A DNA stretch of 64,000 nucleotides from Streptomyces canus (GTDB lineage Bacteria; Actinomycetota; Actinomycetes; Streptomycetales; Streptomycetaceae): positions 8,050,001 through 8,114,000 of the forward strand of contig NZ_JAUSYQ010000002.1 in assembly GCF_030816965.1 (NCBI RefSeq). The letters are read 5' to 3'. The number at the start of each line of letters is the position of its first letter. Position 1 is the stretch's first letter. Below the pieces are notes generated by a model. It was not told the origin of the DNA. It made no database searches and saw only the letters and a program-made list of their open reading frames with translations. The translations under genes and the position numbers were made by a program. Shown one piece after another: positions 18,519 through 33,360 of this stretch.

Positions 18519-19376
18519 CTACTTGCGCACGGTGCGGCGGTCCAGCCCGAGCTGGCGGGCTGCAGAGCTGAAGGAGCGGCCGGTATCGGTCAGCGCGTGT
18601 ACCGCCTCGAAGAGCCGTCGAGCATGCCGGGCGGCCGGAGTGTCCGCCGACTCGGGTTGCGTCGCCGCGGCGTTCGCGAGCTCGGGCTCGGTTGCCTCGG
18701 GGGCAGGAAGAGCGTGGGGCAGGCAGCCGCGGTGAGTGGCGGCGATTTCCTGAACGCGCCGGGACAGTCCCTGCCACAGATGGAAGCGGTCGCTGACCTG
18801 GACCGCCTGTGGGGCGCCGTCGGCGATGCCCTGCCGGTAGGTGAGCGAGCCGTCGCGGCAGGCGATCTCAACACCGGGATGTCCGCGCAGCCATCGGCTG
18901 AGCTGTTCGGCGTCTCTGCCTTCCCAGAGCGTCAGCGGGAGTCTGGTTTCGGCGTCGACCAGGAGGGTGCCGTAGGTATCGGCGTACAGCGCGAAGTCGT
19001 CCACGCCGAGCACCCGGGGTGTGACCAGCGGCGGCAGCGGCACCCGCATCAGCTGGGCGAGCACGGTGCATCGTGTGCTTCTGCGGGGGCTGATCCCGGC
19101 CAGGCCGGCCTGGCGCATGAGCCGCTCGACCCGCTTGCGGCCGACATGGACGCCCTCGCGCTTCAGGACGGCATGGATCCTGGGCGATCCGTAGATCCCG
19201 CCGGAATCCTGGTGGATCTGCCGGATCTGTCCGGTCAGCTCGGTGTCCTGGCGGATCCGCTCGCAGGCGTCCTTCTCGGCCTGGCGCCAGCGGTAGTTGG
19301 TGGAAGAGGGGATGTGCAGTTCTCGCAGTACGGGCTCGACCCCCAGGTGCGGGTGCTCGTCGAGGAGCGCTCTCAC
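18519..19376 (-). pseudogene. IS3 OrfB N-terminus fused in frame to ISL3 transposase
   Basis: An open frame of 285 codons. Residues 1 to about 95 are the HTH_21 region of IS3 OrfB (SGGIYGSPRIHAVLKREGVH, RLMRQAGLAGISPRR). From about residue 100 the sequence is ISL3: PRVLGVDDFALYADTYGTLL, a DDE domain with RGHPGVEIACRDGS and VSDRFHLWQGLSRRV. The join is exact enough to keep the frame open, but the IS3 integrase core is missing and the ISL3 N-terminal zinc region is absent. The frame then breaks near 18519. Confidence 0.75.
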
Positions 19377-19681
19377 CTGGGCCGGGTCGGGTCGAGCTGC
19401 GCGGCGAAAAAAGCCGAGGCCGTCCGCAGGACCTCGTTCGCCCGACGCAGGTCCCGCACCTCGCGCCGCAGCTGGGCGAGCTCGTTCTTCTCTTCGGTGG
19501 TGAGTAGGTCTTCGCGCTCACCGGCGTCGGCCTCGGCCTGCCGGATCCAGTTCCGCAGGGCTTCGTGATGCACGCCGAGTTCATCGGCCATGCGACGGAT
19601 CACGGGCTTCGGCTCGGCGGTCCGGTACATCCGCACCGCACGCTCACGCAACTCCAGCGGGTACTTCCTCGGGGCAGGCAT
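19373..19681 (-). CDS. IS3-family OrfA (helix-turn-helix)
   Basis: Protein of 102 residues starting MPAPRKYPLELRERAVRMY, the usual OrfA beginning, with helix-turn-helix (VIRRMADELGVHHEALRNWI) and a C-terminal leucine-zipper-like helix (ELAQLRREVRDLRRANEVLR). It overlaps the chimeric OrfB by 4 bases. OrfA itself looks intact, but its partner is not, so activity is unlikely. Confidence 0.85.
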   Translation of the reverse strand: MPAPRKYPLELRERAVRMYRTAEPKPVIRRMADELGVHHEALRNWIRQAEADAGEREDLLTTEEKNELAQLRREVRDLRRANEVLRTASAFFAAQLDPTRPR

Positions 19682-19732
19682 CGTCTGGGCTCCTCTCATG
19701 AGACCCATCTGACCTGCTATCACCTTTCCCCG

Positions 19733-19843
19733 CATCTCGGGGGAACCTCAGTCGACGACATTCTGTACTGGTCAACCTGGCGACGACGACGCCAGCACCA
19801 AGCCCGCATCAGCCACTACAAACGACGCGGACACAGCCCCTGA
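19733..19843 (+). mobile_element. Transposase C-terminal scrap
   Basis: The plus frame reads VDDILYWSTWRRRRQHQARI and SHYKRRGHSP before TGA, a typical basic C-terminus of a Streptomyces DDE transposase. The bases around 19890 (ACTACAATCGGCGCGG) repeat the end of this scrap imperfectly. From 19844 to 20066 I see no gene. Confidence 0.5.
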
Positions 19844-20066: not shown

Positions 20067-20792
20067 TCAAGTACTCTCCGCAATGCCCCCGCGGGCAATT
20101 GTCAGCAGAGCAGGGTTGGATCCCCTTTCCACTTTCATGTTGGTCGCGGGGCCATGGCCGGGCAGCAACAATGTATGATCCGGAATCGGAAGAATATTTT
20201 CACTAATGGTCTGACGCATGGCCACGGAATCCCCGCCCGGGAGGTCACTCCTGCCAATCCCCCCGGCCACCACGACGTCACCGGTGAATACGGTCTGGAT
20301 TAAACTTCCGTCCTCACTCAATTCCTCAGGTATGTCATTGATTTGAAAGATCACGGAACCTTCGGTGTGGCCGGGACTGTGGGTGACTTTGAACTCCAGG
20401 CCAGCCAGCTCAAGCGTCATGTCCTGGTTGATTGTCATGATTTCGTCAGGCTCACGCCAAGAATTCCTTGACCCGAAATTCTCTTCAAGCATTCGAAGTA
20501 GGTGAGGCTCGAGGTCGGCCAAGGGATCATGTAGACGGTACCGATCGGCGTCGTGAACAGTTGTCGCGATGCCGTATGTGCCACAAACCGGTGTCACTGA
20601 ATGGACATGATCCGAGTGGGCATGAGTCAGCAACACATGTGTGGGGCGCAGTTTGTAGTAGTCGATAACTTGCTCGAGCACCTCCACCACGCCGACGCCT
20701 GGGTCGATGATCACGCACTCCTCCCCAGCCCCTGCCGAAACGACATGGCAATTGGTGTCAAAGGCTGCTGCTGAAAAACTCGTGATCAACAT
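20067..20792 (-). CDS. Metallo-beta-lactamase-fold hydrolase (glyoxalase II-like), RiPP operon
   Basis: Protein of 241 residues. Zinc motifs: LLTHAHSDHVHS (HxHxDH, about residues 55-66), SPGHTEGSVIF, VFTGDVVV and LLPGHGPAT, a full MBL-fold set in the glyoxalase II-like branch. Such enzymes hydrolyse thioesters, lactones or phosphoesters. It is the last gene of the operon and its start overlaps the pentapeptide-repeat gene by 7 bases. Its role could be hydrolytic processing of the peptide or detoxification of a by-product; the sequence does not decide. Codon use is less GC-biased than in the flanking core genes. Confidence 0.85.
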   Translation of the reverse strand: MLITSFSAAAFDTNCHVVSAGAGEECVIIDPGVGVVEVLEQVIDYYKLRPTHVLLTHAHSDHVHSVTPVCGTYGIATTVHDADRYRLHDPLADLEPHLLRMLEENFGSRNSWREPDEIMTINQDMTLELAGLEFKVTHSPGHTEGSVIFQINDIPEELSEDGSLIQTVFTGDVVVAGGIGRSDLPGGDSVAMRQTISENILPIPDHTLLLPGHGPATNMKVERGSNPALLTIARGGIAEST

Positions 20793-21460
20793 GAATCCGC
20801 CCTCATTTCCCGCACAGAGATCCCCATTGCGGCAGCGAGCTGATACGTCAACGACAAGGCATCCGTTGGATCCATGGAGGCCCCCGACAGGCTCGGAAGG
20901 CCCTTCAAGCGGTCAAGGGTGCATCCGCTGAAGTGGACACGCTCCATGGAGCACTGGCTGAACTGCGCGTCGCTCAGATCGCAGTCGGTAAACGTTACGT
21001 CCTTCATTTGGGCCGATGTCCAGTCGGTATCGACGAGCTTGCACTTTTCGAAGGCGACGCGTTGAAAGCGGGTGAACCGCCAACTACTCATATCTGCTAC
21101 GCAGTCACGCAGCAGGACGTCCGTCCAATACCCGTCAACCAAAGTCGCACCGGTGATTCGATTCCTCAGATATCGGCATCGGTGGACTCCACAGTTGGCC
21201 ATCTTCAGATTTGCTAGGTCGCATCTCTCGACATGGAGTGCACTCAACGTGCAGCGATCCCATTCGCTGCCATTCACTTTGACGTCAAATACGTTGCACG
21301 TTTCGATGTCGACCAGTTCGAACTCTTTGAAGGAGAAATCAACGTCTGAGATGTGGATGTTCCGGGCTGAGTACTCAGGAGGTAAATCGGTACAGTTAGG
21401 GTCGGATCTTGAAACTCGCCTGTCCTGGCGGAACCCCCTTGGGGGGCGTGGAGTTGTCAT
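20786..21460 (-). CDS. Pentapeptide-repeat protein
   Basis: Protein of 224 residues. Residues about 30-190 consist of five-residue repeats with the central L/F/W and A/C/S pattern (for example CTLSALHVERCDLANLKMAN, DVTFTDCDLSDAQFSQCSME), which fold into a right-handed quadrilateral beta-helix that can mimic DNA. In antibiotic clusters such proteins (McbG, AlbG, CysO types) protect DNA gyrase. Here it lies between an exporter and a hydrolase in the putative RiPP operon, so self-resistance is a reasonable but unproven guess. No kinase or membrane segment is fused. Start is the ATG at 21460. Confidence 0.85.
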   Translation of the reverse strand: MTTPRPPRGFRQDRRVSRSDPNCTDLPPEYSARNIHISDVDFSFKEFELVDIETCNVFDVKVNGSEWDRCTLSALHVERCDLANLKMANCGVHRCRYLRNRITGATLVDGYWTDVLLRDCVADMSSWRFTRFQRVAFEKCKLVDTDWTSAQMKDVTFTDCDLSDAQFSQCSMERVHFSGCTLDRLKGLPSLSGASMDPTDALSLTYQLAAAMGISVREMRADSC

Positions 21461-21505
21461 TCGGTCATCCCAGTAAGAGAAACATCGGGTCAGGCGGCCA
21501 TGTCT

Positions 21506-22753
21506 TCATTGCGCCTCCGCTTCCACTGCCTTCAGCGCTGCCCTGATCTTCGTCGGGGCGAGCTGTCCGCCGAACAATGCGCAGAAGAGAGCGACCGTAA
21601 GACCTGCGGCGATGTACACCGCACGGACATCCAGCCACTGTGCCAAGAAGCCAGCACCGAGTGCGCCCAACGGTATGGCAAGCCCGAAGGTCATCATCTG
21701 GCTCACGCTGCTTACCCTTGAGAGCAGGGTGTTGGGAACCATGCGCTGTCTGAGTACCGAGACCTGCACTGCTGCGATTACCCCGATGAGCGAGTCAAGA
21801 CCGAGAGCCGCCGCGATCACATAACCATTTCCGACGATTCCCATGGCGAGCATGATCGGGCACATCGAGAGAATGGCGGGAAGAATGACTCGGGCCAGAT
21901 CCATACGGTCGCCGAACTTGGTCGAGACGATCCCGCCAATGAATGCACCGACTCCGCTGACCGAAAGGAGCACTCCATAGGCGGAAACAGGTAGGTCGGC
22001 TGTTTCCGTCGCCAGCAGTACAAGCATGGACGTCGCCGCACTCTGGGTGAGATTCACGACGAAGACAGTGAAGATGAGCGAGCGCACCAGGACATGATTC
22101 CTCACCCAACGCAACCCTTCGGTCACTTCGTTGAGAAGCGAGCTCTTCGGCGTGGCTTCTTTGTCATCGCTCGCAATGTCCTGCTGTCGCCGGTGCGCTG
22201 TGATGAAGAGTGCGCTGATGATGAATGTTGCTGCATTGAAGAAGAGAGGAACAATACGCCCCAAGGCGAAGAGCCAGCCTCCGAAGAGGGGTCCGACAAA
22301 GGTGCCGCCAACCATATTGATCGTCTGGATCTGTCCGTTGAGCCGGCCCAAATTCTCCGCGTCGGTGATCTGCGGCAGCAATCCCTGGGTGGCCGTGTCG
22401 AAGAGCGTGTCGCCAGTGCCGAGAGCGAGGGCGGAGAGGAAGAGCAGCCACAGGTAGTCGGTGCCTGTGAGGAAGAAGGAAGCGAGGCTGATCAGCACCA
22501 CGGCGCGGAAGGCATCGGCCATGAGCATGAGAAGCCGGCGGTCGTATCGGTCTGCGATTGCACCACTGAACAGGGCGATGACCAGCCATGGCAGCCGACC
22601 CGCCACTGCCAGGCCGGAGATCGCCACAGGATCGTGGGTCACCGAGACCGCGAGCATGGGGAACACTGCCGTTCTGATGCCCTCGCCCACCGAGGAGACG
22701 CCGAACGCATTAGTGATGAGCGTGGTGCGTCGTTTCACTGCCGCCGTGGTCAC
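21506..22753 (-). CDS. MFS transporter (EntS/MFS_3-like exporter), RiPP operon
   Basis: Protein of 415 residues with about 12 hydrophobic helices and the conserved loop after helix 2 reading GAIADRYDRRLLMLMADAF, characteristic of drug/siderophore exporters of the MFS_3 group. The start is GTG 22753, overlapping the TGA of the TldE-like gene, so it is translationally coupled to the protease pair. It is the only transporter in the operon and is the obvious candidate to export the mature modified peptide and give partial immunity. Confidence 0.9.
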   Translation of the reverse strand: MTTAAVKRRTTLITNAFGVSSVGEGIRTAVFPMLAVSVTHDPVAISGLAVAGRLPWLVIALFSGAIADRYDRRLLMLMADAFRAVVLISLASFFLTGTDYLWLLFLSALALGTGDTLFDTATQGLLPQITDAENLGRLNGQIQTINMVGGTFVGPLFGGWLFALGRIVPLFFNAATFIISALFITAHRRQQDIASDDKEATPKSSLLNEVTEGLRWVRNHVLVRSLIFTVFVVNLTQSAATSMLVLLATETADLPVSAYGVLLSVSGVGAFIGGIVSTKFGDRMDLARVILPAILSMCPIMLAMGIVGNGYVIAAALGLDSLIGVIAAVQVSVLRQRMVPNTLLSRVSSVSQMMTFGLAIPLGALGAGFLAQWLDVRAVYIAAGLTVALFCALFGGQLAPTKIRAALKAVEAEAQ

Positions 22754-23820
22754 ACTGGCCCTCTCGTTCGCGTGCGGAGCACATCATCAGGTACAGCCAG
22801 CCAACGTGAGGTCCACGGTCCCGGCCCTCGCTGCCACGGACCACACCAGGATCCGCTGTCCATGAGATCCGCCAGATGAGAAAAGCCGACCACCTTCGCT
22901 CGTTCACCAGCCCCCGACCCGTCACCCGTCCGCAGCGCAACGACCGCGTTGCGGCCTCCCGCGTCAATGCCGAGCAAGGCACCAGAACTGACCATTTTCG
23001 CGGAGCGTGGGAACGGCGCCGTCGGCCCGTTCGGGCCCACGACCAGATCCCGGATGTGCGGACCACCCGCACCTGCATGCCCCGTGGTCTCCCCGGCCGC
23101 GGACAGTCGTGTGCGCGCGTCGGTGGCGCGGGCCAGCCAGCAGCCTGCCCGGGAGAAAGTGACCGGGCGTCTCGCCGTGCCTTCCATGTCGACGCCCCGT
23201 CCCCACGCGGGGTCGACCAGGGACGCAGACGGCCATTTCGCCAGCCCTTCTTGGGAGGTGAGAGCGGCCGAGAGTGTCTCCAGGAATATCTCTCCCAGGA
23301 TCCAGGGGGGTAGCAGCATCTCGCCGTCCTTGGTGTCCGGTTCGGCGATCGCGGGGTTAAGTGCCGCCGAGGCAGGCACGCGAGCGAAGGGCTTGTCCCC
23401 TTTCCCCAGCGTCACCCAGGAACGTTGCCAGCTTCCCCGATGCCGGTCTCCGGAAGCATGACGCACGGAGAACTCGACCTTTTCCGAAGAGTCGCCGATC
23501 TCTTCCAACCAATCAAGTGCGAGCAGGTCACCCAGAGCGGGGGACCCGTCTGTATCGGACTCGTCAAGGCCGGTCCCTGGCTTACCTCGTGGCACATGCT
23601 GCGCCGCATCGAGCAGGGCCTGCTCGAGCAGGGCATCGCTGATCTGTTCCTCGCCCGCGCCGACGGGCAGGACAGCTTTGCCCACCCGGTCGTCCGTCAT
23701 AACTGTCAGGCACAGTAGGTGCTGCTCGTCATGGTATTGCACCTGGCCGTTGCTGTATGGAAGGGAGCCGGACAACATGGCGTCGATTCGGGTGAGGCTC
23801 CAGGTGCTGGTTTGGATCAT
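22750..23820 (-). CDS. TldE/PmbA-like partner protease subunit, RiPP operon
   Basis: Protein of 356 residues starting at ATG 23820, which overlaps the stop of the TldD-like gene (ATGA). It has the PmbA/TldE layout: a long N-terminal alpha/beta domain, a C-terminal beta-rich domain (ending with FSHLADLMDSGSW and a short tail) and no HExxxH zinc motif. In TldD/TldE heterodimers the E subunit lacks the metal and shapes the cavity that admits unfolded peptides. Similarity is low overall and rests on coupling, size, the EGTARRPVTF-type segment and order after TldD. The upstream in-frame extension to 24027 is a shadow of TldD. Confidence 0.72.
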   Translation of the reverse strand: MIQTSTWSLTRIDAMLSGSLPYSNGQVQYHDEQHLLCLTVMTDDRVGKAVLPVGAGEEQISDALLEQALLDAAQHVPRGKPGTGLDESDTDGSPALGDLLALDWLEEIGDSSEKVEFSVRHASGDRHRGSWQRSWVTLGKGDKPFARVPASAALNPAIAEPDTKDGEMLLPPWILGEIFLETLSAALTSQEGLAKWPSASLVDPAWGRGVDMEGTARRPVTFSRAGCWLARATDARTRLSAAGETTGHAGAGGPHIRDLVVGPNGPTAPFPRSAKMVSSGALLGIDAGGRNAVVALRTGDGSGAGERAKVVGFSHLADLMDSGSWCGPWQRGPGPWTSRWLAVPDDVLRTRTRGPV

Positions 23821-24890
23821 GCCGGCCACACCTGGACTTCTGGAATCGTCAATGCCGGGCAGGCCACATAGCTGGGCAGTGCGTCCCCGTCCTTGATGCA
23901 CTCGCCGCCGAGGAACTGCCAGGCCAGCGGGCCGTCGTCGGGGGGTTGAAAGTGACCCGCCGTCAATCGATCGTGATCCAGGGTGAACTTCACAGGGCCT
24001 GACCAGACGAGCTCCGCGCCATGCCACTCCTCAGCATGCAACACATCGAAAAGGGCCACGCGGCCGAAGTAGCGCGCTCCGCGCGCCGCAAGACAGCGCA
24101 GCCAAGGCCCTTCACACTCCGCAGGCTCTGCGGACTCTGCTTGCACTTCCAGTTCGGGAAACCGCAGGATGGAGTTGAGACCGTGCATCGCACGCAGGTG
24201 ATGAACGCACTTCACGCTGTCACTCAACGCATCGAGCGCCTTACCTTCATCGATCACCACAGATGATCCGGCGGTCACGCGCGCGCGGCCCGGCAGCACC
24301 CTTTCCCCCGCACGAAGGTCTTGCTCTTCCAGGGCGTGACCGACCAGCTCGTGCACCGCGATTCCCGCAAGCTCCTCACTGAGGACTACTGGCATCGTCA
24401 TTGCCCGGTGCAACGGCTCCGAGGAGGGGCGGAACGATTGCACCAGACTGACTTGGGCCTCCGCCAGCTCGGGCAGCCGCTCGGGGCTGCGTATCCATCT
24501 CCGTTGCCGGCCCTGTGCATGCGACACCACAAGGTAAAGGTCGGTGGCAGCATCCGAACTCAGGATTCGTCCACTCCCGGCGATGACGGTGCGCCGACGA
24601 AAGCACATCTCAAGAGTGAGGTCGACTTCGCCGGACGCCACTGGCGTGGAGGCCAGCACCGGCTCCAGAGTGCTGGCGTACATCTCAAGCTTGATCGTGG
24701 CGGCGAGCTCGTCCTCGTCCGGGGCCATTGGTTCAAGTTCTAGCCGCGAAGCCCGCAGTACACCAGGGGATGTACGCCACTGTTGGTGCCGGCTCCGCCG
24801 CCGCTGGACGCATTGCACACCCTTGTCCGGTGTGGAGCTGACCAGAAGGACCGAGCTGAGGTCCTCGGTGTATTGGTCAGGCTGCGGCAT
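23817..24890 (-). CDS. TldD-like zinc metalloprotease, RiPP operon
   Basis: Protein of 357 residues, shorter than E. coli TldD. The zinc helix AVHELVGHALEEQDL (H180-E181-xxx-H185) matches the HExxxH of TldD, and a later GGECIKDGD segment (about residues 325-335) supplies the expected Cys ligand region. TldD/TldE complexes degrade unfolded peptides and remove the leader of microcin B17. Here the enzyme would trim the modified precursor encoded at 29732-29908. It overlaps the P450 stop by 14 bases and TldE by 4, placing it in the same transcript. Confidence 0.85.
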   Translation of the reverse strand: MPQPDQYTEDLSSVLLVSSTPDKGVQCVQRRRSRHQQWRTSPGVLRASRLELEPMAPDEDELAATIKLEMYASTLEPVLASTPVASGEVDLTLEMCFRRRTVIAGSGRILSSDAATDLYLVVSHAQGRQRRWIRSPERLPELAEAQVSLVQSFRPSSEPLHRAMTMPVVLSEELAGIAVHELVGHALEEQDLRAGERVLPGRARVTAGSSVVIDEGKALDALSDSVKCVHHLRAMHGLNSILRFPELEVQAESAEPAECEGPWLRCLAARGARYFGRVALFDVLHAEEWHGAELVWSGPVKFTLDHDRLTAGHFQPPDDGPLAWQFLGGECIKDGDALPSYVACPALTIPEVQVWPA

Positions 24891-25953
24891 GGCTTCCCGG
24901 GTATGCCTCGAAGATGAACCGCAGTGACTCTTCCCTGTCGTCGGCGGCGTCGGAGACCGGTGTCAGCGTGCCCCGCGATGTGATTTCCGTGAGGATGATT
25001 TCGGCAATCTGCAGGGAGAGCTCACGCGCGATGCAGGTGTGCGCGCCCCACCCGAAGGCAAGGTGCGGTTTCGCTTCGCCTTGGGCGGATTCGATCAGCG
25101 ACTGCCGGTTGGCGGTGACGACGTCAACTAGCACACGGTCGCCTGCCTGGATCTTTGCGTCGTGGAGAACGGTGTCATTGCGTGCAACTCGAGTGATCAC
25201 CAAGTCCTTGACGAGTGCCGCACCGCGGGAGACGACCGACCGAAGGCTCTCGCCGTGGAGTTCGTCCGTCGAGAGCCTGCCTCGGTGCATTTCGGACAGC
25301 ACCATGTGGGCGATCGACGTGTTCCGGCCGTAGGCGGCCATCTCGAAGAGCGGCATGGTCAGCAGGGCGATCTCTCGGGCGCTGAGGTTTCCGCGATCCA
25401 GTGCGAACCGGGGCAGCCCTGGGGTATCGAAGGGCCCGCCTGCCGCAACGGCCACGTGCAGCCTGTTCCAGACCCAGCCCTGCAACTGTCGGATGGCGTG
25501 CTCGTCGGCGCCCTCCGCCGTGAGCTTCGCGGCGTAACGGAGGGCGGCCAGCAGCGTGCTGCCTTCCTCTTGAGTGACCCCGCCCAGGGCGCATGCCACG
25601 CGTCGGCCATACGGCCGCAGACATTCCTCCACAATGTCGAAGGAAGTCCCCTGGGGCAGGAGGCTCACGACCTCACGTGCGCCTTCTCCGAATGCTTCGA
25701 TCAGTGCGGGCATACGGGCCGGCGCGAGGTATGCCGCGAGTTCCTTGTGGCAGCGCGCGGCAGCGGCGCCGTCCGTCATGTCGGCCGCCAGGAAGAAGCT
25801 CTTGGAGAGGCCGGGCACATACTCGTCGAACCGTGCGATCCGGAAGTTGCCTGAGTCGTCGAGCACTTCCCGGCTCCGATCCAGGTCGGCTACGACATGT
25901 ACGCAGGTCCCGCCATCGTCTGGGATGTCGTCCAGCAAGATCTCGTCAGCCAT
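24877..25953 (-). CDS. Cytochrome P450, RiPP operon
   Basis: Protein of 358 residues, clearly shorter than the usual bacterial length of about 400. The heme loop is HLAFGWGAHTCIARELS with Cys 307, and the K-helix ExxR is ESLR (235-238). The I-helix reads PLFEMAAYGRNTSIAHM, lacking the normal acidic-Thr oxygen-activation pair, so it may be an atypical monooxygenase or a coupling P450. Position between the carbamoyltransferase (3-base gap) and TldD suggests it oxidises the peptide, for example creating the hydroxyl that is then carbamoylated. No ferredoxin gene is adjacent. Confidence 0.9.
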   Translation of the reverse strand: MADEILLDDIPDDGGTCVHVVADLDRSREVLDDSGNFRIARFDEYVPGLSKSFFLAADMTDGAAAARCHKELAAYLAPARMPALIEAFGEGAREVVSLLPQGTSFDIVEECLRPYGRRVACALGGVTQEEGSTLLAALRYAAKLTAEGADEHAIRQLQGWVWNRLHVAVAAGGPFDTPGLPRFALDRGNLSAREIALLTMPLFEMAAYGRNTSIAHMVLSEMHRGRLSTDELHGESLRSVVSRGAALVKDLVITRVARNDTVLHDAKIQAGDRVLVDVVTANRQSLIESAQGEAKPHLAFGWGAHTCIARELSLQIAEIILTEITSRGTLTPVSDAADDREESLRFIFEAYPGSHAAA

Positions 25954-25956
25954 CCT

Positions 25957-28089
25957 CTACTCCTTCACGCTGTCTGCCGGGCGCGCCTCGCCATCACTGA
26001 GCAGAGCTCGGATCGTGTGGACTGCACCGCCTTGAGGCACGAGACTCAGCAGCACCTTCGCAACTGCCGCATTCACATGGGGGCCCTTGAAGGAAACACT
26101 GTTGAGCACTTCCGCGGCTTCGGCTGCCGCTCGTGGCATGCCGGACAGCTCCAACACGCGCTGCGCATGCGCTGCCGCCCGTGAGGTGTCCCCCTCGATG
26201 ATGGCGAGGCGCATCTGCAGAGCCTCAAATTCTCGCAGCTTGTCTGCACCGTCCGCGAGGGTGACGGGAGGAGCCAAGGACAGCACCTCCGCCGCCGCTT
26301 TCGGATAACCGGCAGCCTCGTGCCGGAGAGCCAGGTGGAGAGGATCGACGACCGTCTGCTGCTCCGCAAGCCGTATGGATTGCTCGCTCACCTGAGGATC
26401 GAGCGCCGTCAGATCCAGCAGCTCGTCGCCGATGACCAGCACATCCGCGCCGGAGACCAGAAACTGACGGACAGCGTCCTCAGGGGTTTCCACCAATGGC
26501 TCGCCGAGCGTATTGAAGGACGTATTGATCACTGCGGGAAGCCCTGTCAAGTCTCCGAAAGCACGCAGGAGTTGATGATAGGAGCCGTCCTCTTCTGCCA
26601 CGAGCTGATAGCGGATGGTGCCGTCCTTATGGCTCACCGAGCCGAGGCGATCATCCCGCGTCCGAGCGACAGCCAGCATGTAGGGGCCGAGCGACGCCGG
26701 TACGCTGTCGAGCTCTAGTAGCGACGGCGCCTGATCAGCATCGATACTGATACCGAAGGGCCGGAACGGCTCGCGGAACTTGACCCTGGAATTGAGGGTT
26801 TCGACGATACCCGGACGACAAGGGTCAGCGATGATGCTCCGGTGGCCCAGTGCCCGCGGTCCCCACTCCGATCGACCGTCGACACGGCAGACGAGTTTGC
26901 CCTCCGCCAGCAGACCGGCAACGGCAGCTGGTTCCGCGCTCGACACATGCCCTTCGAGTCCGTACGCGGCCCAGGCGCTCTTGCTATCAGCCGATGTGTA
27001 GCGGGGCCCCAGCACACTGGAGAACCTCTTGACGGGCTCTCGGGATCTGCCGAGGACCTCGATCCATCCGTAGTAGGCGAGTCCGATGGCGCAGCCGTCG
27101 TCCGTCGCAGCGGGCTGGACGAAGACGTCCTCGAATCCCGCTTCAAGGAGGCGGGAATTGGCGGTGCAGTTCAGGGCGACGCCTCCGGCGTAGGAGAGGT
27201 GCCTCGCGCCGGTCTCAAGCCGTAGGGTTGCCGCGGTGTGCAGCACGCCGCGCTCGAGCTCCGCCTGCGCATGAGCCGCGAGGTCCGCGGCAAGTGGTGT
27301 CCCCCAGTGCACCGCGCGGTACTTCTTGTCGAACCCTTCCAAGCTCCCGGCCGGCCGATTGCGATGGCCCGGAAAGACCGGAACACCCGCCACGGATTCC
27401 AGGAAATGGTCGAGCGCCTCCAGACTTACGTCGACGTCACCGTCCGCGGCGAGGGACACGAGCTCGGGCCAGTCCTCATGGGCGCGACCATAGGACGCGA
27501 GGGCCATGAGTTTGCCGGCGGCAGGCAGGCCGGCCTCCGAAAGGCCAGTAAGAGCCGCGAAGACGTCGAAGAACATACCCAGGCTGAGATTCGTCCTGGT
27601 GCCTGTGAACCGGCGGCATGTCTGCAGGACTCCACTCTCGCCCAGGAACCACGATCCACGCTCGAATCGGCCGTCGTCATGGCGGTAACCCTGCTCGTCC
27701 AGCACCAGCACAGCCGAGTCCTTGAACGGACTTGTGGCGTACGCACTGTAGGCATGCGCCAAGTGGTGTCCAGGCGCGGGAGGTTCGACTACTCGCTCTG
27801 GGTCCACCGGAAGAGCCTTGATCAGTTCGTCCCGGCAAGTGCGGACAGACCTGCCGCATACGACGAGATCCACTTCATGCAGGCCGATTCCACTCTCGGA
27901 CAGCACCCTCGCGATCGCCCGCAGTGGTGGCAATACAAGGCCGCCCGAGTCACCCTCGTAGAAGCCCTGAGACCGTTTGCGACGGTCCAGACGTTCCTCC
28001 GCCACGGCGCCGACCACGGTTCCGTCGCGCAACAGCGCGGCCGACCTGTCATGGCTGGACATGCTTATACCCAATACGTACTTGTGCAT
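25957..28089 (-). CDS. NodU/TobZ-type carbamoyltransferase with C-terminal extension
   Basis: Protein of 710 residues. The N-terminal Kae1-like domain begins VLGISMSSHDRSAALLRDG and contains PGHHLAHAYSAYATSPF and SYAGGVALNCTANSRL. The C-terminal part shows CRVDGRSEWGPRALGHRSII and INTSFNTLGEPLVETPEDAV, which bind carbamoyl-adenylate and phosphate. These enzymes transfer carbamoyl from carbamoyl phosphate, via carbamoyl-AMP, to a hydroxyl. Relatives are about 550-600 residues. The extra 100-130 residues at the end (after LDPQVSEQSIRLAEQ) are helical and TPR-like (AAAEVLSLAPP, AAAHAQRVLELSGM), possibly a peptide-docking domain. It lies 3 bases from the P450 and the RRE-like gene. Confidence 0.92.
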   Translation of the reverse strand: MHKYVLGISMSSHDRSAALLRDGTVVGAVAEERLDRRKRSQGFYEGDSGGLVLPPLRAIARVLSESGIGLHEVDLVVCGRSVRTCRDELIKALPVDPERVVEPPAPGHHLAHAYSAYATSPFKDSAVLVLDEQGYRHDDGRFERGSWFLGESGVLQTCRRFTGTRTNLSLGMFFDVFAALTGLSEAGLPAAGKLMALASYGRAHEDWPELVSLAADGDVDVSLEALDHFLESVAGVPVFPGHRNRPAGSLEGFDKKYRAVHWGTPLAADLAAHAQAELERGVLHTAATLRLETGARHLSYAGGVALNCTANSRLLEAGFEDVFVQPAATDDGCAIGLAYYGWIEVLGRSREPVKRFSSVLGPRYTSADSKSAWAAYGLEGHVSSAEPAAVAGLLAEGKLVCRVDGRSEWGPRALGHRSIIADPCRPGIVETLNSRVKFREPFRPFGISIDADQAPSLLELDSVPASLGPYMLAVARTRDDRLGSVSHKDGTIRYQLVAEEDGSYHQLLRAFGDLTGLPAVINTSFNTLGEPLVETPEDAVRQFLVSGADVLVIGDELLDLTALDPQVSEQSIRLAEQQTVVDPLHLALRHEAAGYPKAAAEVLSLAPPVTLADGADKLREFEALQMRLAIIEGDTSRAAAHAQRVLELSGMPRAAAEAAEVLNSVSFKGPHVNAAVAKVLLSLVPQGGAVHTIRALLSDGEARPADSVKE

Positions 28090-28092
28090 CGG

Positions 28093-28416
28093 CTACTGTC
28101 CTTCGGTAGGCGCCATTGCGGAAGTCCGAGCACACTGGTTGGACCAATCCGCTCCCCACGCGTCGGTTGGTACGCCATGGTCAGCCAGGTCGTTCAAGAA
28201 GCTGCAGATCAGGGATAGGGTGATACGAGAACGATCTTCACTGTTGGCCTTGATATCTGTCGGAGAATTTTCCGCAACCTGACGAACGAGTTCGGCGGCG
28301 TCGGCGTTAAGGTCCACTATCAGCGTGCCGTAGCGGATCTGCGCTGTCTGCTTATCGAAGTAGACACGTATCGCTGTTGGGCCGGACCCTATGACAGCAC
28401 GGTCGGTCGAGTTCAA
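28093..28416 (-). CDS. Small PqqD/RRE-like peptide-binding protein (putative)
   Basis: Protein of 107 residues starting at TTG 28416, with GGAG 8 bases upstream, overlapping the radical SAM stop (TTGA). The core region runs IVDLNADAAELVRQVAEN, then a spacer, then ITLSLICSFLNDLADHGV. The alternation of an LN-x-A helix, a second helix and a final FLxxLxxxG helix resembles PqqD-like RiPP recognition elements. Such domains bind leader peptides and deliver them to radical SAM enzymes. Similarity is by pattern only; the 20 C-terminal residues are unlike PqqD. The position directly after the radical SAM gene supports the call. Confidence 0.6.
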   Translation of the reverse strand: MNSTDRAVIGSGPTAIRVYFDKQTAQIRYGTLIVDLNADAAELVRQVAENSPTDIKANSEDRSRITLSLICSFLNDLADHGVPTDAWGADWSNQCARTSAMAPTEGQ

Positions 28417-29600
28417 CGCGCGATCTCCAAAGAAGCAACCGGGGTGGTCAGCGGACAGGCGGCGTCGGTGGCACTTACATCACCAAAGTCAGCCAGGGCC
28501 CGCGACCTGGACCCACCACCACAAATGCTGCGGAGGCTGCAGGTCCTGCATCCTCCACCGATGTCCGCGACACGCAAGGACCTCATATCGGAAAGACGTT
28601 CCGACCGCGCCCAGATCTCCTGCAGTGACTGCTCCCGAAGGCTTCCACAGAGTTCACGGGACTCTCCGACCATGAGCACGCTCGGATAGACTGTTCCGTC
28701 GCCTGCGATGCACAGCTCCGCCCAGCCGGCGACATCACCAATGTCCCGGGACCTGGCGTAGGAAGCCTCTCGGAGTGGGCTACGGTAATCCCACGCGGAT
28801 TCCGCTTCCTTAATGTCTATCTCCGCATCGATAAGCGGGAGGTAGAACTCCCACGGACTCGGCACGGAGAGTTGCATCTTAGGAATCCCGCCACTCAACC
28901 TCAATCGCGTCAGGTCAGCGAAGAACTCAGCCCATTCTGGCCAGGAGAAATCGTATAGGTCCAGGTGCTCCCGACCGAAGCCCGCAGGGAAGAACTTGAT
29001 CGCCACCATGGACTGAGCGCCGAGCTCTTCGATCGCGAAGTCGTACGTCGCGACGAGGTCGCTGCGCCCAGCCTTCGTCATGGTGGTATTGACCGAGACG
29101 TCAAGACCTGCCCTGGCTGCGCGGCGAACACCGTCTGTCACACGCCTAAAGAGGGCGGCACGAGCAGCCGGGGTCGCCCCCGGCTGCGCCCGGAGCAGGC
29201 CGAAGCTGTCGGGGGTCGAACCGTCGACGCTGATGTTGAGCCCCACCTCCGGGCACGCTTCCAGCAGTGTCGCGATGGACCGGTCTGTCAGGAACAGTCC
29301 GTTGGTGATCGCCGACACACGCCAGCCGGGCAGGTTCGTGGCATGTTGCAGGATCTCCAGCAGGTCCGACCGCATGAACGGCTCGCCGCCGGCAAACGCA
29401 ATGCTTAATGCACCCAGCTCATGCGCCTGACTCACTGCATCTTTGATCTCGGCAGTGGTTAATTCGCTCGGGAGGGCCTTTCCGGAGGCGCTGTGGCAAT
29501 GCGTACAGGCCAGATTGCAAGCGTTTGTTAGATTGAAATCGACATGGACGAGACTTGGCACGGCGACCGTCCGGTGGGTGAGGAGTCGGGAGTCAAGCAC
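28413..29600 (-). CDS. Radical SAM/SPASM peptide-modifying enzyme
   Basis: Protein of 395 residues from GTG 29600. The [4Fe-4S]-SAM motif is NACNLACTHCH (CxxxCxxC, about residues 28-35), followed by AFAGGEPFMRSDLLEIL, the GGE SAM-binding element. The C-terminal SPASM region has Cys residues in WAELCIAGDGTVYPS, RELCG, GGCRTCSLRSICGGG and DAACP, enough for two auxiliary clusters as in PqqE, MftC and cyclophane/sactipeptide synthases. It is the first enzyme after the precursor gene and should carry out radical C-C or C-heteroatom crosslinking on the peptide. The ribosome binding site is weak. Expression may rely on read-through of the hairpin at 29709. Confidence 0.93.
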   Translation of the reverse strand: MLDSRLLTHRTVAVPSLVHVDFNLTNACNLACTHCHSASGKALPSELTTAEIKDAVSQAHELGALSIAFAGGEPFMRSDLLEILQHATNLPGWRVSAITNGLFLTDRSIATLLEACPEVGLNISVDGSTPDSFGLLRAQPGATPAARAALFRRVTDGVRRAARAGLDVSVNTTMTKAGRSDLVATYDFAIEELGAQSMVAIKFFPAGFGREHLDLYDFSWPEWAEFFADLTRLRLSGGIPKMQLSVPSPWEFYLPLIDAEIDIKEAESAWDYRSPLREASYARSRDIGDVAGWAELCIAGDGTVYPSVLMVGESRELCGSLREQSLQEIWARSERLSDMRSLRVADIGGGCRTCSLRSICGGGSRSRALADFGDVSATDAACPLTTPVASLEIAR

Positions 29601-29708
29601 TGTAGGCCACAGACATTGTGCAGAAGCAGAAGCCGGCTGGATCGGTTACGGAACCCAGGCAGATCCGATGGGTCATTCCCTCACCAGCCGACTTCCGTGT
29701 GGTGTGCC

Positions 29709-29726
29709 TAGCTCTTCACTGAGCTA
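29709..29726 (-). terminator. Attenuator hairpin after RiPP precursor gene
   Basis: TAGCTC-TTCACT-GAGCTA (plus-strand reading) is a perfect 6-bp stem with a 6-base loop starting 6 bases after the precursor stop codon and before the radical SAM gene. RiPP operons often have such a partial terminator or mRNA-stabilising hairpin so that precursor exceeds enzyme. Confidence 0.5.
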
Positions 29727-29731
29727 TTGCC

Positions 29732-29908
29732 TCAGCGAGCGGCTTCCGCCTGGATGGCGTTGCGCAGCTGCTCACGGACGGCGCTCGGAAGCGTGTCGAT
29801 CGAGACCTCGTCGGCGGCCGGCTCCGCCGGCAGCTCGAAGTTGACCTTCGTGCGGTTCCACTGCATGGACTTGACCTTGGTGACCTCGAAGGCGGGCTTG
29901 AAAGACAT
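29732..29908 (-). CDS. RiPP precursor peptide (58 residues, no Cys)
   Basis: ATG 29908 is preceded by a good ribosome binding site (CAGGAG, 6 bases). The peptide begins MSFKPAFEVTKVKSMQWNRT, continues KVNFELPAEPAADEVSIDTL and ends PSAVREQLRNAIQAEAAR. It is rich in charged residues, has no Cys, one Trp (W17) and a helical, Ala/Glu-rich C-terminus. Size, isolated short frame, position as first gene before a radical SAM enzyme, and the downstream hairpin all mark it as a precursor. The W17-N18-R19 triplet would fit three-residue cyclophane chemistry, and Ser/Thr residues could be carbamoylated. If the Trp region is the core, it lies in the N-terminal half with a C-terminal follower. The core position is not known. 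Confidence 0.75.
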   Translation of the reverse strand: MSFKPAFEVTKVKSMQWNRTKVNFELPAEPAADEVSIDTLPSAVREQLRNAIQAEAAR

Positions 29909-30283: not shown

Positions 30284-30591
30284 TCACAGATCGCCGAGGA
30301 ATATGTCAGTTCGCTCGTGAATGCACTGGGCGATGCGCCCGTTGCGCAGTGTGCGAACGAGGTCAGTGACCACCCGTACACGAGCGTCGACCTCGCGGTG
30401 GTGGAACCGCGTGTTCTGGTGGATCTTGACGTACCAGACCCCCGCTTGCGCTCCGTCAGCTCGCCATACCCGGCTCCTGTCGCGGGCCCAGGAGGCGTCC
30501 GTCCAGGTGGTGATGCGCCCCACCGCCTGCTCGGCGAGCTGTCGCACTTCCTCGGGGGGAGGTCCGGGTGCGTCGGCGGGGCCGTGCTCAT
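30284..30591 (-). pseudogene. Broken aminoglycoside-phosphotransferase-like gene
   Basis: ATG 30591 overlaps the NUDIX stop (ATGA), the natural coupled start, but a missing base in the C-run near 30552 puts the kinase frame out of register. The corrected frame reads DLPPEEVRQLAEQAVGRI, then WRADGAQAGVWYVKIHQNTR, the N-terminal nucleotide-binding beta-sheet with the Lys of APH-type kinases. It then degenerates after about 80 residues and stops at 30284, lacking the catalytic HGD and DxD motifs. Confidence 0.65.
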
Positions 30592-32069
30592 GCCCAGCCC
30601 GTTTCGGAGTAGGGGCGTCCGGTGCGGATGCCCTCGATGGCAACCCGGGTGTAGGGGACGAGGTTGTCGGGGAGCGCGGTCGGGTCCCAGAATTTCCACT
30701 GGGTGCACTTGTCCGGCTCGCGCAGGTCTGGCTCGCCGGTCCAGGTCCGGGCGCGGAAGAACAGGCCCATGCGGGGCCGGTCCCCGGCTTTGTCGATGTG
30801 GTGGACGACGTGGACGAGTTCGACGTCCTGGTGCTTGATCTGCAGGCCGGCTTCCTCCCGTGCCTCCCTGATCAGGCAGGTGATGGCGCTCTCCTGCTCG
30901 CAGTGGCCGGCCAGGACGTGCCAGGTGGAGGGCGCGAACGTGGAGTCGGGGTGGCGCAGCCCGAGCAGCACCGTTCCGTCGGGCCGTTCCAGGTAGAGGT
31001 GGACGCCGATGACGTTGAGGACCGTGTCGTGCGGGGAGGTCGGGCGGTGCTCCTCGTGCGATGAGAGCCCGCTCTGTGGCGCGGTGCTGGCCGGGAGGCT
31101 GGCGGCGTGGCGCCGTACGAGGTCGCTGGTGGTGTCTGCGATGCGCAGGCGGTGGAGGTCGTCGGGGGCGAACCAGGCCAGCATCACCCCTTCCGTCAGG
31201 CGGAGTTCGCGGGGATCGCCGTTCCAGCGGCCGGCGTAGATGGCGATGGGCACGCTCGCGCCGGCGTCGTCGGAGGCGTACTCGGTGCCGAACGGGGTCA
31301 GGTCGGCGATGTCGAGGCTGGCTTCCTCGGCCAGTTCGCGCCGCACAGTGTGTTCCAGGGTGGCGTCCTGGGGCTCTCGGCCGCCGCCCAGCAGGGACCA
31401 CATGCCCGGCTCCCAGATCCGGCCGGGGAAGTAGTCGCGCAGGTGGAGCAGGTACTCGCCGCGGTCGTTGTAGATCAGGGCGGAGGCGTTGGCCGTATCC
31501 GGTTCGGTCTCCCGTGTGAGCTTGAGCAGCTTCTCGCGTAGGGAGGGGGAGGTCACCCTGTCCACGGGCCGCCACTCGATGCCGGCGACCTCTTCTTCCT
31601 GCAGCACCACCGGCGCCTCGGTCGCGGCGTGCAGGTGGAAGAGGAACCGGAGGTCGAAGTGCTGGTGGCCGGGTTCGCCTTTGCCCGGGTGGGTGTCGAT
31701 GTCGTGGATGTCGATGTCGAACGGCACGGCTTCGTAGCCGGGCCACGGTGCCACGGCCTGGGGCGGGATCCCGGTCTCCTCGTGCAGCTCCCGCAGCGCT
31801 GCTGCTGCCAGGGACTCGTCGACGGGCTCGGTGTGTCCGCCGGGGGCGAGGACCTTCCCGCTCGCCAGGTGCAGCACGTGCAGGACGCGGCCGAGCGGGT
31901 CGACGACGATCGCGCTGCAGGTGACGTGCCCGGTGAAGGTGGAGCGGCTGGCGATGTCGGTGGGCCGGTCCAGGGCGTCCAGGAGGCCGCCGAGCTGCTC
32001 GCGCTCGTGAGGGTGGCGAGCGAGGTAGGTCTCGACGGTGGTGCGGATGTGGTCGTGCGACAACGGCAT
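30588..32069 (-). CDS. Protein with three tandem NUDIX domains
   Basis: Protein of 493 residues made of three NUDIX folds in one chain. The boxes are GGHTEPVDESLAAAALRELH followed by EETGI (about residues 77-100), GGGREPQDATLEHTVRRELA followed by EEASL (about 232-255), and AGHCEQESAITCLIREAREE followed by AGL (about 391-413). Box 1 and box 3 keep the REx2EE core; box 2 has RELAEEA, also intact. NUDIX enzymes hydrolyse nucleoside diphosphates linked to another group. An N-terminal 45-residue segment precedes domain 1. Triple NUDIX proteins are uncommon; the substrate is unknown. The downstream phosphotransferase gene is broken. Confidence 0.88.
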   Translation of the reverse strand: MPLSHDHIRTTVETYLARHPHEREQLGGLLDALDRPTDIASRSTFTGHVTCSAIVVDPLGRVLHVLHLASGKVLAPGGHTEPVDESLAAAALRELHEETGIPPQAVAPWPGYEAVPFDIDIHDIDTHPGKGEPGHQHFDLRFLFHLHAATEAPVVLQEEEVAGIEWRPVDRVTSPSLREKLLKLTRETEPDTANASALIYNDRGEYLLHLRDYFPGRIWEPGMWSLLGGGREPQDATLEHTVRRELAEEASLDIADLTPFGTEYASDDAGASVPIAIYAGRWNGDPRELRLTEGVMLAWFAPDDLHRLRIADTTSDLVRRHAASLPASTAPQSGLSSHEEHRPTSPHDTVLNVIGVHLYLERPDGTVLLGLRHPDSTFAPSTWHVLAGHCEQESAITCLIREAREEAGLQIKHQDVELVHVVHHIDKAGDRPRMGLFFRARTWTGEPDLREPDKCTQWKFWDPTALPDNLVPYTRVAIEGIRTGRPYSETGWA

Positions 32070-32126
32070 GGGGCTACCTCAGAGGTGCGTGGAGCGGGAC
32101 GAGTCGAGGCGGGGTGGTCGTTCGTG

Positions 32127-33360
32127 TCAGCTCAGCCGCATCCCCTCCGGCGGGACTTCCTCGATGGCGGCGGCGCGAGCCGTGGGCAGGTGCCACCGCT
32201 TCCGGGCTGTCTCCGCGGCGAGCAGGACTTGTCGCGCTCCGGGCGGGCCCCATCCCAGGAGAGCGGCTGCCTGGGCGGGGGGGGGCGAGCAGGCGGGCGA
32301 AAGGGCGCCCGGTGGCGGGGTCGGCGGTCGCAGGCCCGATGGCGGTGACCCGTGCGGCCAGGCGGAGCCGGGCGTTGGGCCCCACTCCGCCGTAGACCTC
32401 GCCGGTCTCGTCCAGCACCCAGCCCAGTCGTACCGGATCGGCCAGGGTGAGCTGGGCTTCCTCGGCGGCTTCGCGGTGCAGGGTGCCCTCGGGCGTCGTG
32501 TCGGTCGTCTCCATGGTGCCGCCGGGCAGCATCGGCAGGGCTCCACGGGGGCCGGGATCGGCCACGAGGACGACCCGGCCGTCGGGGACGAAGCACCACG
32601 CCCAGGCTTGCTGCACGGGCAGCCGCTCGGGGACGGGGCCGCGGTTGAGAGGGCTGCTGTCCCACAAGGGCCGGTAGCGGACGTGGACGTCGTGGCGGTC
32701 CAGCGCCGGGACGTCGAGGATGTGCCGGCCGTCGGCGAGGTGAGCGGTGGCGGTGTTCCCGAGCCGGGCGCGGTAGGCGGCGAGCATGATCTGCCCGCCA
32801 ACGGGGCGCAGCCGCTGCACCGCGTCCCGGGTCTCCAGGAAGGCGAACTCGGACAGCTCCTCGCGCGGCAGGCGGATCGCCTCCACCTGGTCGGGGCCGG
32901 GGCAGGGCGTGCCGGGCTGAAGGTCAGGGTGGTGCGGGGAGAAGGAGTGGACGGCGAGCACGGCCGACAGGGGCAGGTCCACCAGGCCCAGTTCCTCGGT
33001 GATCTCGCGCCGGCAGGTGACATGCGGGTGTTCGCCGGGTTCGACGACGCCTCCGGGCAGCAGCCACGAGTCGTCCTTGCGGTAGGTGGGGTGCACCAGC
33101 AGGACCCGGCTGGCCTCGTCGGTGATGATCGCGGCGGCGCCGACCCATACTGCGTGCCGGGATGCGGCGTGCTGTCCCGTAGACAGGACGGCACGCGGTG
33201 TGACGTGCTGGGTGAGTTCGCCCAGATGACCGGGCGCAAACCGGCCTCCGGCCACCGTGACGGTACGCGTGATGGCACACTGTTCGGACAGCGGAGCCTC
33301 CGGTCTTGTGAACGGCTTGTCTTGGTCGACTGCCAGTTCTACCGGGGCTCCGCTCCTCAT
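32127..33360 (-). pseudogene. Two-domain NUDIX gene with frameshift and IS-derived N-terminus
   Basis: The frame from ATG 33360 contains NUDIX box 1 (GGVVEPGEHPHVTCRREITE, then ELGL) and box 2 (GGTMETTDTTPEGTLHREAA, then EEAQL). At a run of nine G (plus strand 32277-32285) the frame slips; continuing in the next frame gives AQAAALLGWGPPGARQVLLA and a natural end PPEGMRLS at 32127, a normal NUDIX tail. The uncorrected frame ends at 32074. The first 60 residues include TRTVTVAGGRFAPGHLGELT, the N-terminus of an IS4-like transposase, so the original start is lost or replaced. The frameshift could be a homopolymer read error. Confidence 0.7.

What the first reader, a model, noticed from the sequence alone, without database searches (positions are those of the whole stretch)
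20067..29908. Putative new RiPP cluster: radical SAM, RRE-like protein, carbamoyltransferase, P450 and TldD/TldE around a Cys-free precursor
Ten minus-strand genes, mostly overlapping or 3-4 bases apart, follow a 58-residue precursor. Seen directly: CxxxCxxC plus SPASM cysteines, a NodU-type carbamoyltransferase, a P450 heme loop, HExxxH of TldD, an MFS exporter, a pentapeptide-repeat protein and an MBL hydrolase. Family knowledge: TldD/E mature microcin B17; radical SAM/SPASM enzymes crosslink peptides; TobZ-type enzymes carbamoylate hydroxyls. Inference: a crosslinked, hydroxylated and O-carbamoylated peptide. I recall no described RiPP class with this combination. Lower GC and IS debris on the left suggest horizontal acquisition.
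Basis: partly seen in the sequence, partly recalled or inferred. Interest (0 to 1): 0.95.

Follow-up and report, generated by a model that had tools for sequence, protein, structure and literature searches.

The report
New modified-peptide gene cluster, MQWNR core
A bacterium carries a compact gene cluster that very likely makes a small, chemically modified peptide (perhaps an antibacterial) from a Met-Gln-Trp-Asn-Arg core, and related clusters sit in four bacterial phyla, yet our paper searches found no description of the family.

Summary
Window 20067-29908 (minus strand) encodes a 58-aa precursor and nine further genes. In six of six close, independent loci found through its radical SAM gene alone (Deinococcus radiodurans plasmid CP1, two Shouchella, Alkalihalophilus, Mesorhizobium, a Streptomyces plasmid) a similar short ORF lies upstream: five with W-N-R in the core, one with W-P-R. 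A precursor search gave 35 cluster representatives, all with M-x-W-N-R; 18 share a longest-contig length with a radical SAM relative (0.08 expected). Carbamoyltransferases co-occur likewise. The RRE-like domain is fused to the radical SAM in 34 of 36 long relatives, and one carbamoyltransferase is fused to a P450. Third-codon-position divergence indicates a translated precursor. Best reading: a new RiPP family in which the SPASM enzyme links Trp to Arg (triceptide-like), a P450/carbamoyltransferase pair decorates the peptide, a TldD-type protease trims it and MFS exports it. Qnr/McbG-like pentapeptide proteins in 3 of 7 loci suggest gyrase as target. Weak points: the window's P450 lacks ExxR, TldE is unproven, all product chemistry is inferred, and the window lacks a second radical SAM present in five relatives. 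Nine paper searches (open-access library) found no described class.

The parts
29735..29908 (-). RiPP precursor, 58 aa: leader FKPAFEVTKVKS, core around MQWNRT, follower of helical look (not modelled)
   Evidence: RBS-like AGGAG; 35 family members; third-codon-position divergence
29605..29734 (-). Hairpin between precursor and enzyme genes, probable attenuator or RNA stabiliser
   Evidence: z -2.95 here; hairpins in the same place in the four relatives folded, z -2.87 to -5.16
28413..29600 (-). Radical SAM/SPASM peptide maturase; proposed Trp-Arg cyclophane former
   Evidence: Pfam; none of the 25 NCBIfam families shown (of 89) reaches its cut-off; 96 relatives; tree of 93
28093..28416 (-). 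RRE-like precursor-binding protein
25957..28089 (-). O-carbamoyltransferase of the GdmN/NovN/TobZ type
   Evidence: Both Pfam domains over cut-off; PDB GdmN E 5e-57, TobZ 1e-53
24877..25953 (-). Divergent cytochrome P450 (heme-Cys loop kept, ExxR lost)
   Evidence: five P450 proteins of relatives over Pfam cut-off
23817..24890 (-). TldD-type zinc metalloprotease; proposed leader and follower removal
   Evidence: HExxxH and a distal Cys invariant in 6 of 6; family profile matches E. coli TldD 5nj5 E 4e-14
22750..23820 (-). Putative TldE-like partner (by position)
   Evidence: Directly behind TldD in 5 of 7 loci; no convincing profile match to TldE
21506..22753 (-). MFS exporter
   Evidence: PF05977 and PF07690 over cut-off; MFS also in 5 of 6 relatives
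20786..21460 (-). Qnr/McbG-like pentapeptide repeat protein; proposed self-protection of gyrase
   Evidence: best PDB match 2w7z E 9e-21, then Legionella IcmE/DotG 4e-15, QnrB1 1e-10, McbG-like 2xt4 1e-8, MfpA 8e-6
20067..20792 (-). MBL-fold hydrolase (glyoxalase II-like), role unknown
   Evidence: PF00753 64.5 bits; no tblastn match in the six relatives
18519..19735 (-). Transposase remnants at the left edge
   Evidence: Pfam HTH_21, DDE_Tnp_ISL3, HTH_Tnp_1

Best explanation
A horizontally acquired RiPP cluster of an undescribed family (the MxWNR family). Shown: conserved precursor, its radical SAM/SPASM enzyme and RRE-like domain, carbamoyltransferase, TldD-type protease and exporter occur together in several phyla. 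Inferred: the RRE-like protein binds the FxPAFEVTxV leader; the radical SAM enzyme forms a C-C bond from Trp17 to the beta-carbon of Arg19, giving a three-residue cyclophane (about 0.6); the P450 (probably working in most relatives, doubtful here) and the carbamoyltransferase add an O-carbamate; TldD with its putative partner chews leader and follower down to the blocked core, giving a product of about three to six residues; MFS exports it; the pentapeptide protein protects the host's own gyrase or topoisomerase IV (about 0.45 that this is the target).
For: Precursor beside the radical SAM gene in 7 of 7 loci including the window, the six others found through the radical SAM gene alone. M, W, N, R invariant in 35 of 35 precursor representatives, Q in 34, T in 31. 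Between window and L005, L007, L008, 14-15 of 18 codons differ at the third position but only 2-3 residues. Contig-length co-occurrence 18 of 35; carbamoyltransferase 34 of 92 with radical SAM or precursor. RRE domain fused to radical SAM; carbamoyltransferase-P450 fusion P0163. W-P-R in L004 changes only the middle residue, as a W-X-R cyclophane allows; XncB links Trp C6 to Arg or Asn C-beta, i to i+2 (PMC11002830, passages seen). A TldD-type protease releases a tripeptide from both sides in biphenomycin (PMC12707348, passages seen). Pentapeptide proteins of window and L008 have 2w7z as best solved relative, with McbG-like and MfpA structures further down.
Against: No chemistry is shown. The window's P450 lost ExxR. 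A second radical SAM present in five of the six relatives is missing here and gave no match at E 1e-10 in the whole genome (run without a positive control), so the window's cluster may be a reduced or different variant. Pentapeptide genes are seen in only 3 of 7 loci, and L004's best solved match is the Legionella IcmE protein. TldE is not supported by sequence or model. The precursor search picks candidates by shared 5-residue words, so part of the 35-of-35 invariance is by construction. Equal longest-contig length is only a proxy for neighbourhood.
Confidence: 0.6

Rival explanations
1. The cluster makes a PQQ- or mycofactocin-like redox cofactor or other non-antibiotic small molecule from the WNR core.
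For: Best solved relative of the radical SAM enzyme is PqqE; PqqD is among the VIA-align rows of the RRE-like model; the KPAFE leader resembles that of PqqA (recalled).
Against: Very patchy spread (1 of 392 same-genus genomes; 1 of 394 same-class), plasmids, MFS exporter, Qnr-like protein.
Confidence: 0.12
2. The radical SAM enzyme does a different reaction on the core (for example on Met15 or Gln16, epimerisation, or a Trp-Asn bond) and the second radical SAM or the P450 makes the cross-link.
For: M15 and Q16 are as conserved as W and R; a second radical SAM is present in 5 of 7 loci; P450 cross-links are known in other RiPPs (biarylitides, abstract in listing).
Against: Second radical SAM absent from window and L004 while the core persists; middle residue varies N to P with W and R kept; no P450 match in L004.
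Confidence: 0.25
3. In this genome the cluster is decaying and makes nothing, or only an undecorated cyclophane.
For: P450 without ExxR, missing second radical SAM, transposase debris beside it, lower GC.
Against: All ten reading frames are open with overlapping or near-touching junctions; the precursor keeps the core and its segment shows purifying selection against the Bacillota copies. Selection on the other genes was not measured.
Confidence: 0.15
4. The pentapeptide and MBL genes are unrelated cargo and the target is not a topoisomerase.
For: Pentapeptide in only 3 of 7 loci, on the opposite strand in L004; MBL in 1 of 7; GC 0.55 against 0.57-0.66 for the other genes.
Against: Pentapeptide and MBL overlap by 7 bases and follow the exporter on the same strand; pentapeptide genes recur in loci of two phyla.
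Confidence: 0.4

Closest known systems
Triceptides (three-residue cyclophane RiPPs, XncB/OscB/MscB type radical SAM)
   Same: SPASM radical SAM beside a short precursor; core with W-X-R, a linkage reported for XncB (PMC11002830, passages seen)
   Different: RRE-like protein, carbamoyltransferase, P450 and TldD around it; the radical SAM reaches no cut-off among the 25 NCBIfam families shown; cross-link not shown; no direct comparison with XncB was made
Microcin B17 (linear azole peptide, gyrase poison)
   Same: TldD-type trimming protease and a McbG-like pentapeptide protein (McbG recalled)
   Different: No YcaO match in the window's ten proteins; radical SAM instead
Biphenomycins (bip)
   Same: TldD-type protease acting on both sides of a tripeptide core, MFS, and a second radical SAM in five relatives
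   Different: Core and oxygenases differ (Phe-Arg-Phe and MNIO there); carbamoyltransferase and RRE-like protein here (PMC12707348, passages seen)
Biarylitides/myxarylin
   Same: Very short precursor and prolyl oligopeptidase, as in the L004 relative
   Different: Cross-link made by a P450 there (start of abstract in listing only)
TobZ/NovN/GdmN O-carbamoyltransferases
   Same: Same two-domain enzyme family
   Different: Those act on aminoglycoside, aminocoumarin and ansamycin substrates (recalled); here beside a peptide precursor

Membership tests
RiPP cluster | Short translated precursor next to a peptide-modifying enzyme, conserved together | tested here: met
   7 of 7 loci; third-position divergence; contig-length co-occurrence
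RiPP cluster | Product derived from the precursor | not testable with these tools
   Needs mass spectrometry
Triceptides | Core with aromatic-X-X motif, first and third residue kept | tested here: met
   W and R in 7 of 7 loci; middle N in 6, P in 1
Triceptides | Radical SAM belongs to a known cyclophane-forming family | tested here: inconclusive
   None of the best 25 of 89 NCBIfam matches reaches its cut-off
Triceptides | C-C bond between residue i and i+2 | not testable with these tools
   Needs NMR
RRE domain | Three strands then three helices | tested here: met
   Model: short E6-9, then E16-20 E25-29 E32-36 H38-49 H52-56 H60-79, two more helices behind; pLDDT 83.5
RRE domain | Structural likeness to solved RREs | tested here: inconclusive
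TldD protease | HExxxH and distal Cys zinc ligands (motif recalled) | tested here: met
   Invariant in 6 of 6; profile hit 5nj5 E 4e-14
TldE subunit | Sequence or fold likeness to TldE/PmbA | tested here: inconclusive
   hhalign probability 2.6%, no PDB match, failed model pLDDT 38.4
O-carbamoyltransferase (TobZ type) | Both Carbam_trans domains | tested here: met
   121 and 175 bits, cut-offs 24 and 27
Cytochrome P450 (working enzyme) | ExxR and heme-Cys loop (motifs recalled) | tested here: not met
   Window keeps FGxGxHxC but not ExxR; of the 7 other sequences compared 6 keep ExxR, L007 does not
Qnr/McbG-type pentapeptide repeat proteins | Sequence likeness to topoisomerase-protecting members | tested here: met
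   2w7z 9e-21, QnrB1 1e-10, McbG-like 2xt4 1e-8; far below the NCBIfam Qnr cut-off (48 of 240 bits)
Linear azole peptides (microcin B17) | YcaO cyclodehydratase in the cluster | tested here: not met
   No YcaO match among the window's ten proteins
Biphenomycins | MNIO enzyme and Phe-Arg-Phe core | tested here: not met
   No MNIO match among the window's ten proteins; core MQWNRT

The most novel reading that the evidence does not exclude
A tripeptide-scale antibiotic class: a Trp-Asn-Arg cyclophane, hydroxylated and O-carbamoylated, that poisons DNA gyrase, spread by horizontal transfer among four phyla including Deinococcus radiodurans, with Qnr-like proteins as matching immunity.
Probability: 0.3. 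Interest if true: 0.92.

Novelty: new variant of a known kind. Interest (0 to 1): 0.76.

Why it matters
A RiPP family with one nearly fixed five-residue core across four phyla is unusual, since RiPP cores often vary (recalled). A fixed core suggests a fixed target. The gene set offers one testable guess at it (gyrase) and three unproven chemistries on a peptide: Trp-Arg cross-link, P450-coupled O-carbamoylation (a natural fusion of the two enzymes exists), and TldD trimming to a minimal product. The model organism D. radiodurans carries the cluster on plasmid CP1, so the question can be tested in a known strain. It may also point to the natural role of some Qnr-like proteins.

Tried and rejected
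Papers: nine full-text searches found no RiPP with this gene set or an MQWNR core; the library is open-access PubMed Central only, so subscription papers (for example the triceptide survey in JACS 2022, seen only as a reference) were not read.

Small-molecule cluster (carbamoyltransferase and P450 acting on a non-peptide): held unlikely because carbamoyltransferase relatives share contig lengths with precursor and radical SAM relatives.

The D. radiodurans precursor looked frameshifted in NC_000959. In CP150843 the frame is open, and 14 Deinococcus records give a gapped in-frame match over query residues 1-29, NC_000959 not among them; I read the letters of CP150843 only. The shift is most likely an error or variant of that one record (inference). 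An ISDra5 transposase lies between precursor and radical SAM there.

Viral contigs gave only distant or no relatives. The window's pentapeptide and MBL proteins had no tblastn match in L003, L005, L007, L009. The second radical SAM was called B12-like in my notes; Pfam shows a B12-binding match in 1 of 5 (L007, 26.7 bits, under the 32.1 cut-off), so B12 is not claimed. The 25-row sister clade (L004 type, Xenorhabdus, Photorhabdus, one Salmonella entry) shares no contig length with carbamoyltransferase or MQWNR precursor rows; I could not fetch a Xenorhabdus locus. Of 193 plasmid records, I opened the Deinococcus and Streptomyces jietaisiensis ones; the others shown were about 31% identical or less and 173 were not listed. 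One search used an ill-chosen family merely to place the window. The script prints only the first listed domain per protein, so some positions there are not the best domain; I used whole-protein E-values. One alignment held an out-of-frame row from L009 and was redone.
Full report
What is there. Between 20067 and 29908 on the minus strand lie a 58-aa precursor (MSFKPAFEVTKVKSMQWNRTKVNFELPAEPAADEVSIDTLPSAVREQLRNAIQAEAAR) and nine genes in tight succession. Pfam names the radical SAM/SPASM enzyme, carbamoyltransferase, MFS exporter, pentapeptide repeat protein and MBL hydrolase over cut-off; P450 and TldD score below cut-off; the RRE-like protein has only weak, unrelated-looking matches and the TldE-like protein none. 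No NCBIfam match shown reaches its cut-off. The cluster's GC is 0.622 against 0.698 around it, and transposase remnants flank its left side. Horizontal acquisition is likely (inference).

Relatives found by the radical SAM gene. tblastn of plasmids gave D. radiodurans CP1 (53.6% identity) and a Streptomyces jietaisiensis plasmid (45.4%). A scan of genome contigs gave Shouchella tritolerans and S. clausii (look-alike loci, counted once), Alkalihalophilus marmarensis, Shouchella lonarensis and Mesorhizobium waimense at 49-52%, besides seven distant loci of 39% or less that I did not follow. In all six close independent loci a short ORF lies upstream of the radical SAM gene with the same kind of core: MQWNRT in four, MHWNRT in Mesorhizobium, MRWPRHTS in S. 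jietaisiensis. In D. radiodurans an insertion sequence separates the two. The S. jietaisiensis precursor is 24 aa and ends three residues behind W-P-R, so the follower is absent there.

Gene content of the seven loci including the window: precursor 7; radical SAM 7; RRE-like 7 (six separate genes, fused in Mesorhizobium; each is recognised by a profile of the other six); carbamoyltransferase 6 (not S. jietaisiensis); P450 6 (not S. jietaisiensis; in S. lonarensis the reading frame is broken); TldD 6 (S. jietaisiensis has a prolyl-oligopeptidase-family peptidase); TldE-like 5 (not S. jietaisiensis, not Mesorhizobium); MFS 6 (none recognised in Mesorhizobium); second radical SAM 5 (not window, not S. 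jietaisiensis); pentapeptide 3 (window, S. jietaisiensis, S. lonarensis); MBL 1. S. jietaisiensis also has an O-methyltransferase and a luciferase-like monooxygenase. Gene order differs: in the three Bacillota loci the exporter lies upstream of the precursor; the protease genes lie upstream in L005 and L008 and downstream in L007.

Precursor family. A profile search returned 35 cluster representatives, the window's own included and one of them (P0117) a shorter reading of the D. radiodurans ORF. M15, W17, N18 and R19 are identical in 35 of 35, Q16 in 34, S14 in 33; T20 is T in 31, S in 3, C in 1; P5, F7 and E8 in 33; the follower is looser. The search picks candidates by shared 5-residue words, which favours a kept core; the independent test is the six loci above. 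In the leader-core segment of 18 codons the window differs from L005, L007, L008 and the D. radiodurans record L022 at 15, 14, 15 and 11 third positions but in only 3, 3, 2 and 4 residues. This is what a translated peptide under purifying selection looks like.

RNA between precursor and enzymes. Hairpins occupy this spacer in all five loci that I folded (of seven): z -2.95 (window), -5.16 (L004), -2.87 (L005), -4.03 (L007), -4.36 (L008). Such hairpins may give more precursor than enzyme (recalled for RiPP operons).

The carbamoyltransferase and P450. The carbamoyltransferase matches GdmN, NovN and TobZ. Of 93 relatives, 92 have a contig length; 29 equal those of radical SAM rows, 19 those of precursor rows, 14 both, 34 either; chance gives 0.24 and 0.07. 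P0163 (1094 aa) is a carbamoyltransferase fused to a P450, 33% identical to the Mesorhizobium P450, and its contig length equals that of radical SAM row P0039. So hydroxylation followed by carbamoylation is a reasonable reading for the family. In the window, however, the P450 keeps the heme-Cys loop but has lost ExxR, as has L007; six of the eight sequences compared keep it.

The protease. HExxxH and a distal Cys are invariant in six of six TldD-like proteins, and their profile matches E. coli TldD at 4e-14; in relatives the Pfam match is over cut-off in L003, L005, L007 and L009 and below it in L008. The gene behind it looks like a partner by position only. In biphenomycin a TldD-type enzyme cuts both sides down to Phe-Arg-Phe (PMC12707348, passages seen), a precedent for a minimal product here.

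The cross-link. A review states that XncB links Trp C6 to the beta-carbon of Arg or Asn and that these links lie between i and i+2 (PMC11002830, passages seen). The present core keeps W and R and varies the residue between (N or P). This fits a Trp-Arg cyclophane, but it is inference.

The target. The pentapeptide protein's best solved relative is 2w7z (9e-21), followed by the Legionella IcmE/DotG protein (4e-15), QnrB1 (1e-10), a McbG-like protein (1e-8) and MfpA (8e-6); for L008's protein 2w7z, McbG-like and MfpA lead; for L004's, IcmE comes first and the McbG-like protein next. That 2w7z is the Enterococcus faecalis Qnr, that the McbG-like protein is AlbG, that IcmE/DotG is from Legionella and that the Qnr-type proteins protect gyrase is recalled. 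With 3 of 7 loci this is a lead.

Spread. 1 of 392 same-genus genomes and 1 of 394 same-class genomes, the window's own in each case; 4 of 41 in the family of the Shouchella locus and 3 of 358 in its order, all of them loci already found or 100% identical to one; 1 of 398 in the phylum of Mesorhizobium, again the known one, with a sister-clade query. The tree of 93 radical SAM rows puts the window in an 18-row group, joined with support 85 (modest) to a 25-row group that includes S. jietaisiensis and Xenorhabdus/Photorhabdus rows and shares no contig length with MQWNR precursors or carbamoyltransferases found here.

Verdict. A real RiPP family, undescribed as far as nine open-access paper searches show; new variant of a known kind. 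I hold the class near certain (about 0.93); the full mechanism is about 0.6 in its peptide steps and lower for the target.

Noticed in passing
L003:10650-11000 and L022:359-583: The D. radiodurans precursor ORF is out of frame in NC_000959 but open in CP150843 (13 further Deinococcus records also give an in-frame match); an ISDra5 transposase separates it from the radical SAM gene.
   Followed up: partly
window 30588-33360: Two neighbouring minus-strand proteins with three and two NUDIX matches just upstream of the cluster; L005 also has a NUDIX gene (17209-17733) beside its cluster.
   Followed up: partly
P0163: Natural fusion of a carbamoyltransferase with a cytochrome P450, source unnamed.
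   Followed up: partly
P0078-P0079 and P0082-P0091: A 12-row group of radical SAM/SPASM proteins with Xenorhabdus, Photorhabdus and one Salmonella name among them, precursor unknown.
   Followed up: partly
L005:5627-6184: NusG/KOW-type gene upstream of the Shouchella cluster, perhaps a LoaP-like regulator (LoaP recalled).
   Followed up: no
L033:574-2803 (D. radiodurans pCP1): Genes annotated as PEP-utilizing enzyme and PEP/pyruvate-binding protein directly behind the P450; role unknown.
   Followed up: no
window 18519-19376: Chimeric ORF of an HTH_21 domain and part of an ISL3 transposase.
   Followed up: no
L008:15190-16382: P450 of Shouchella lonarensis has a broken reading frame.
   Followed up: no
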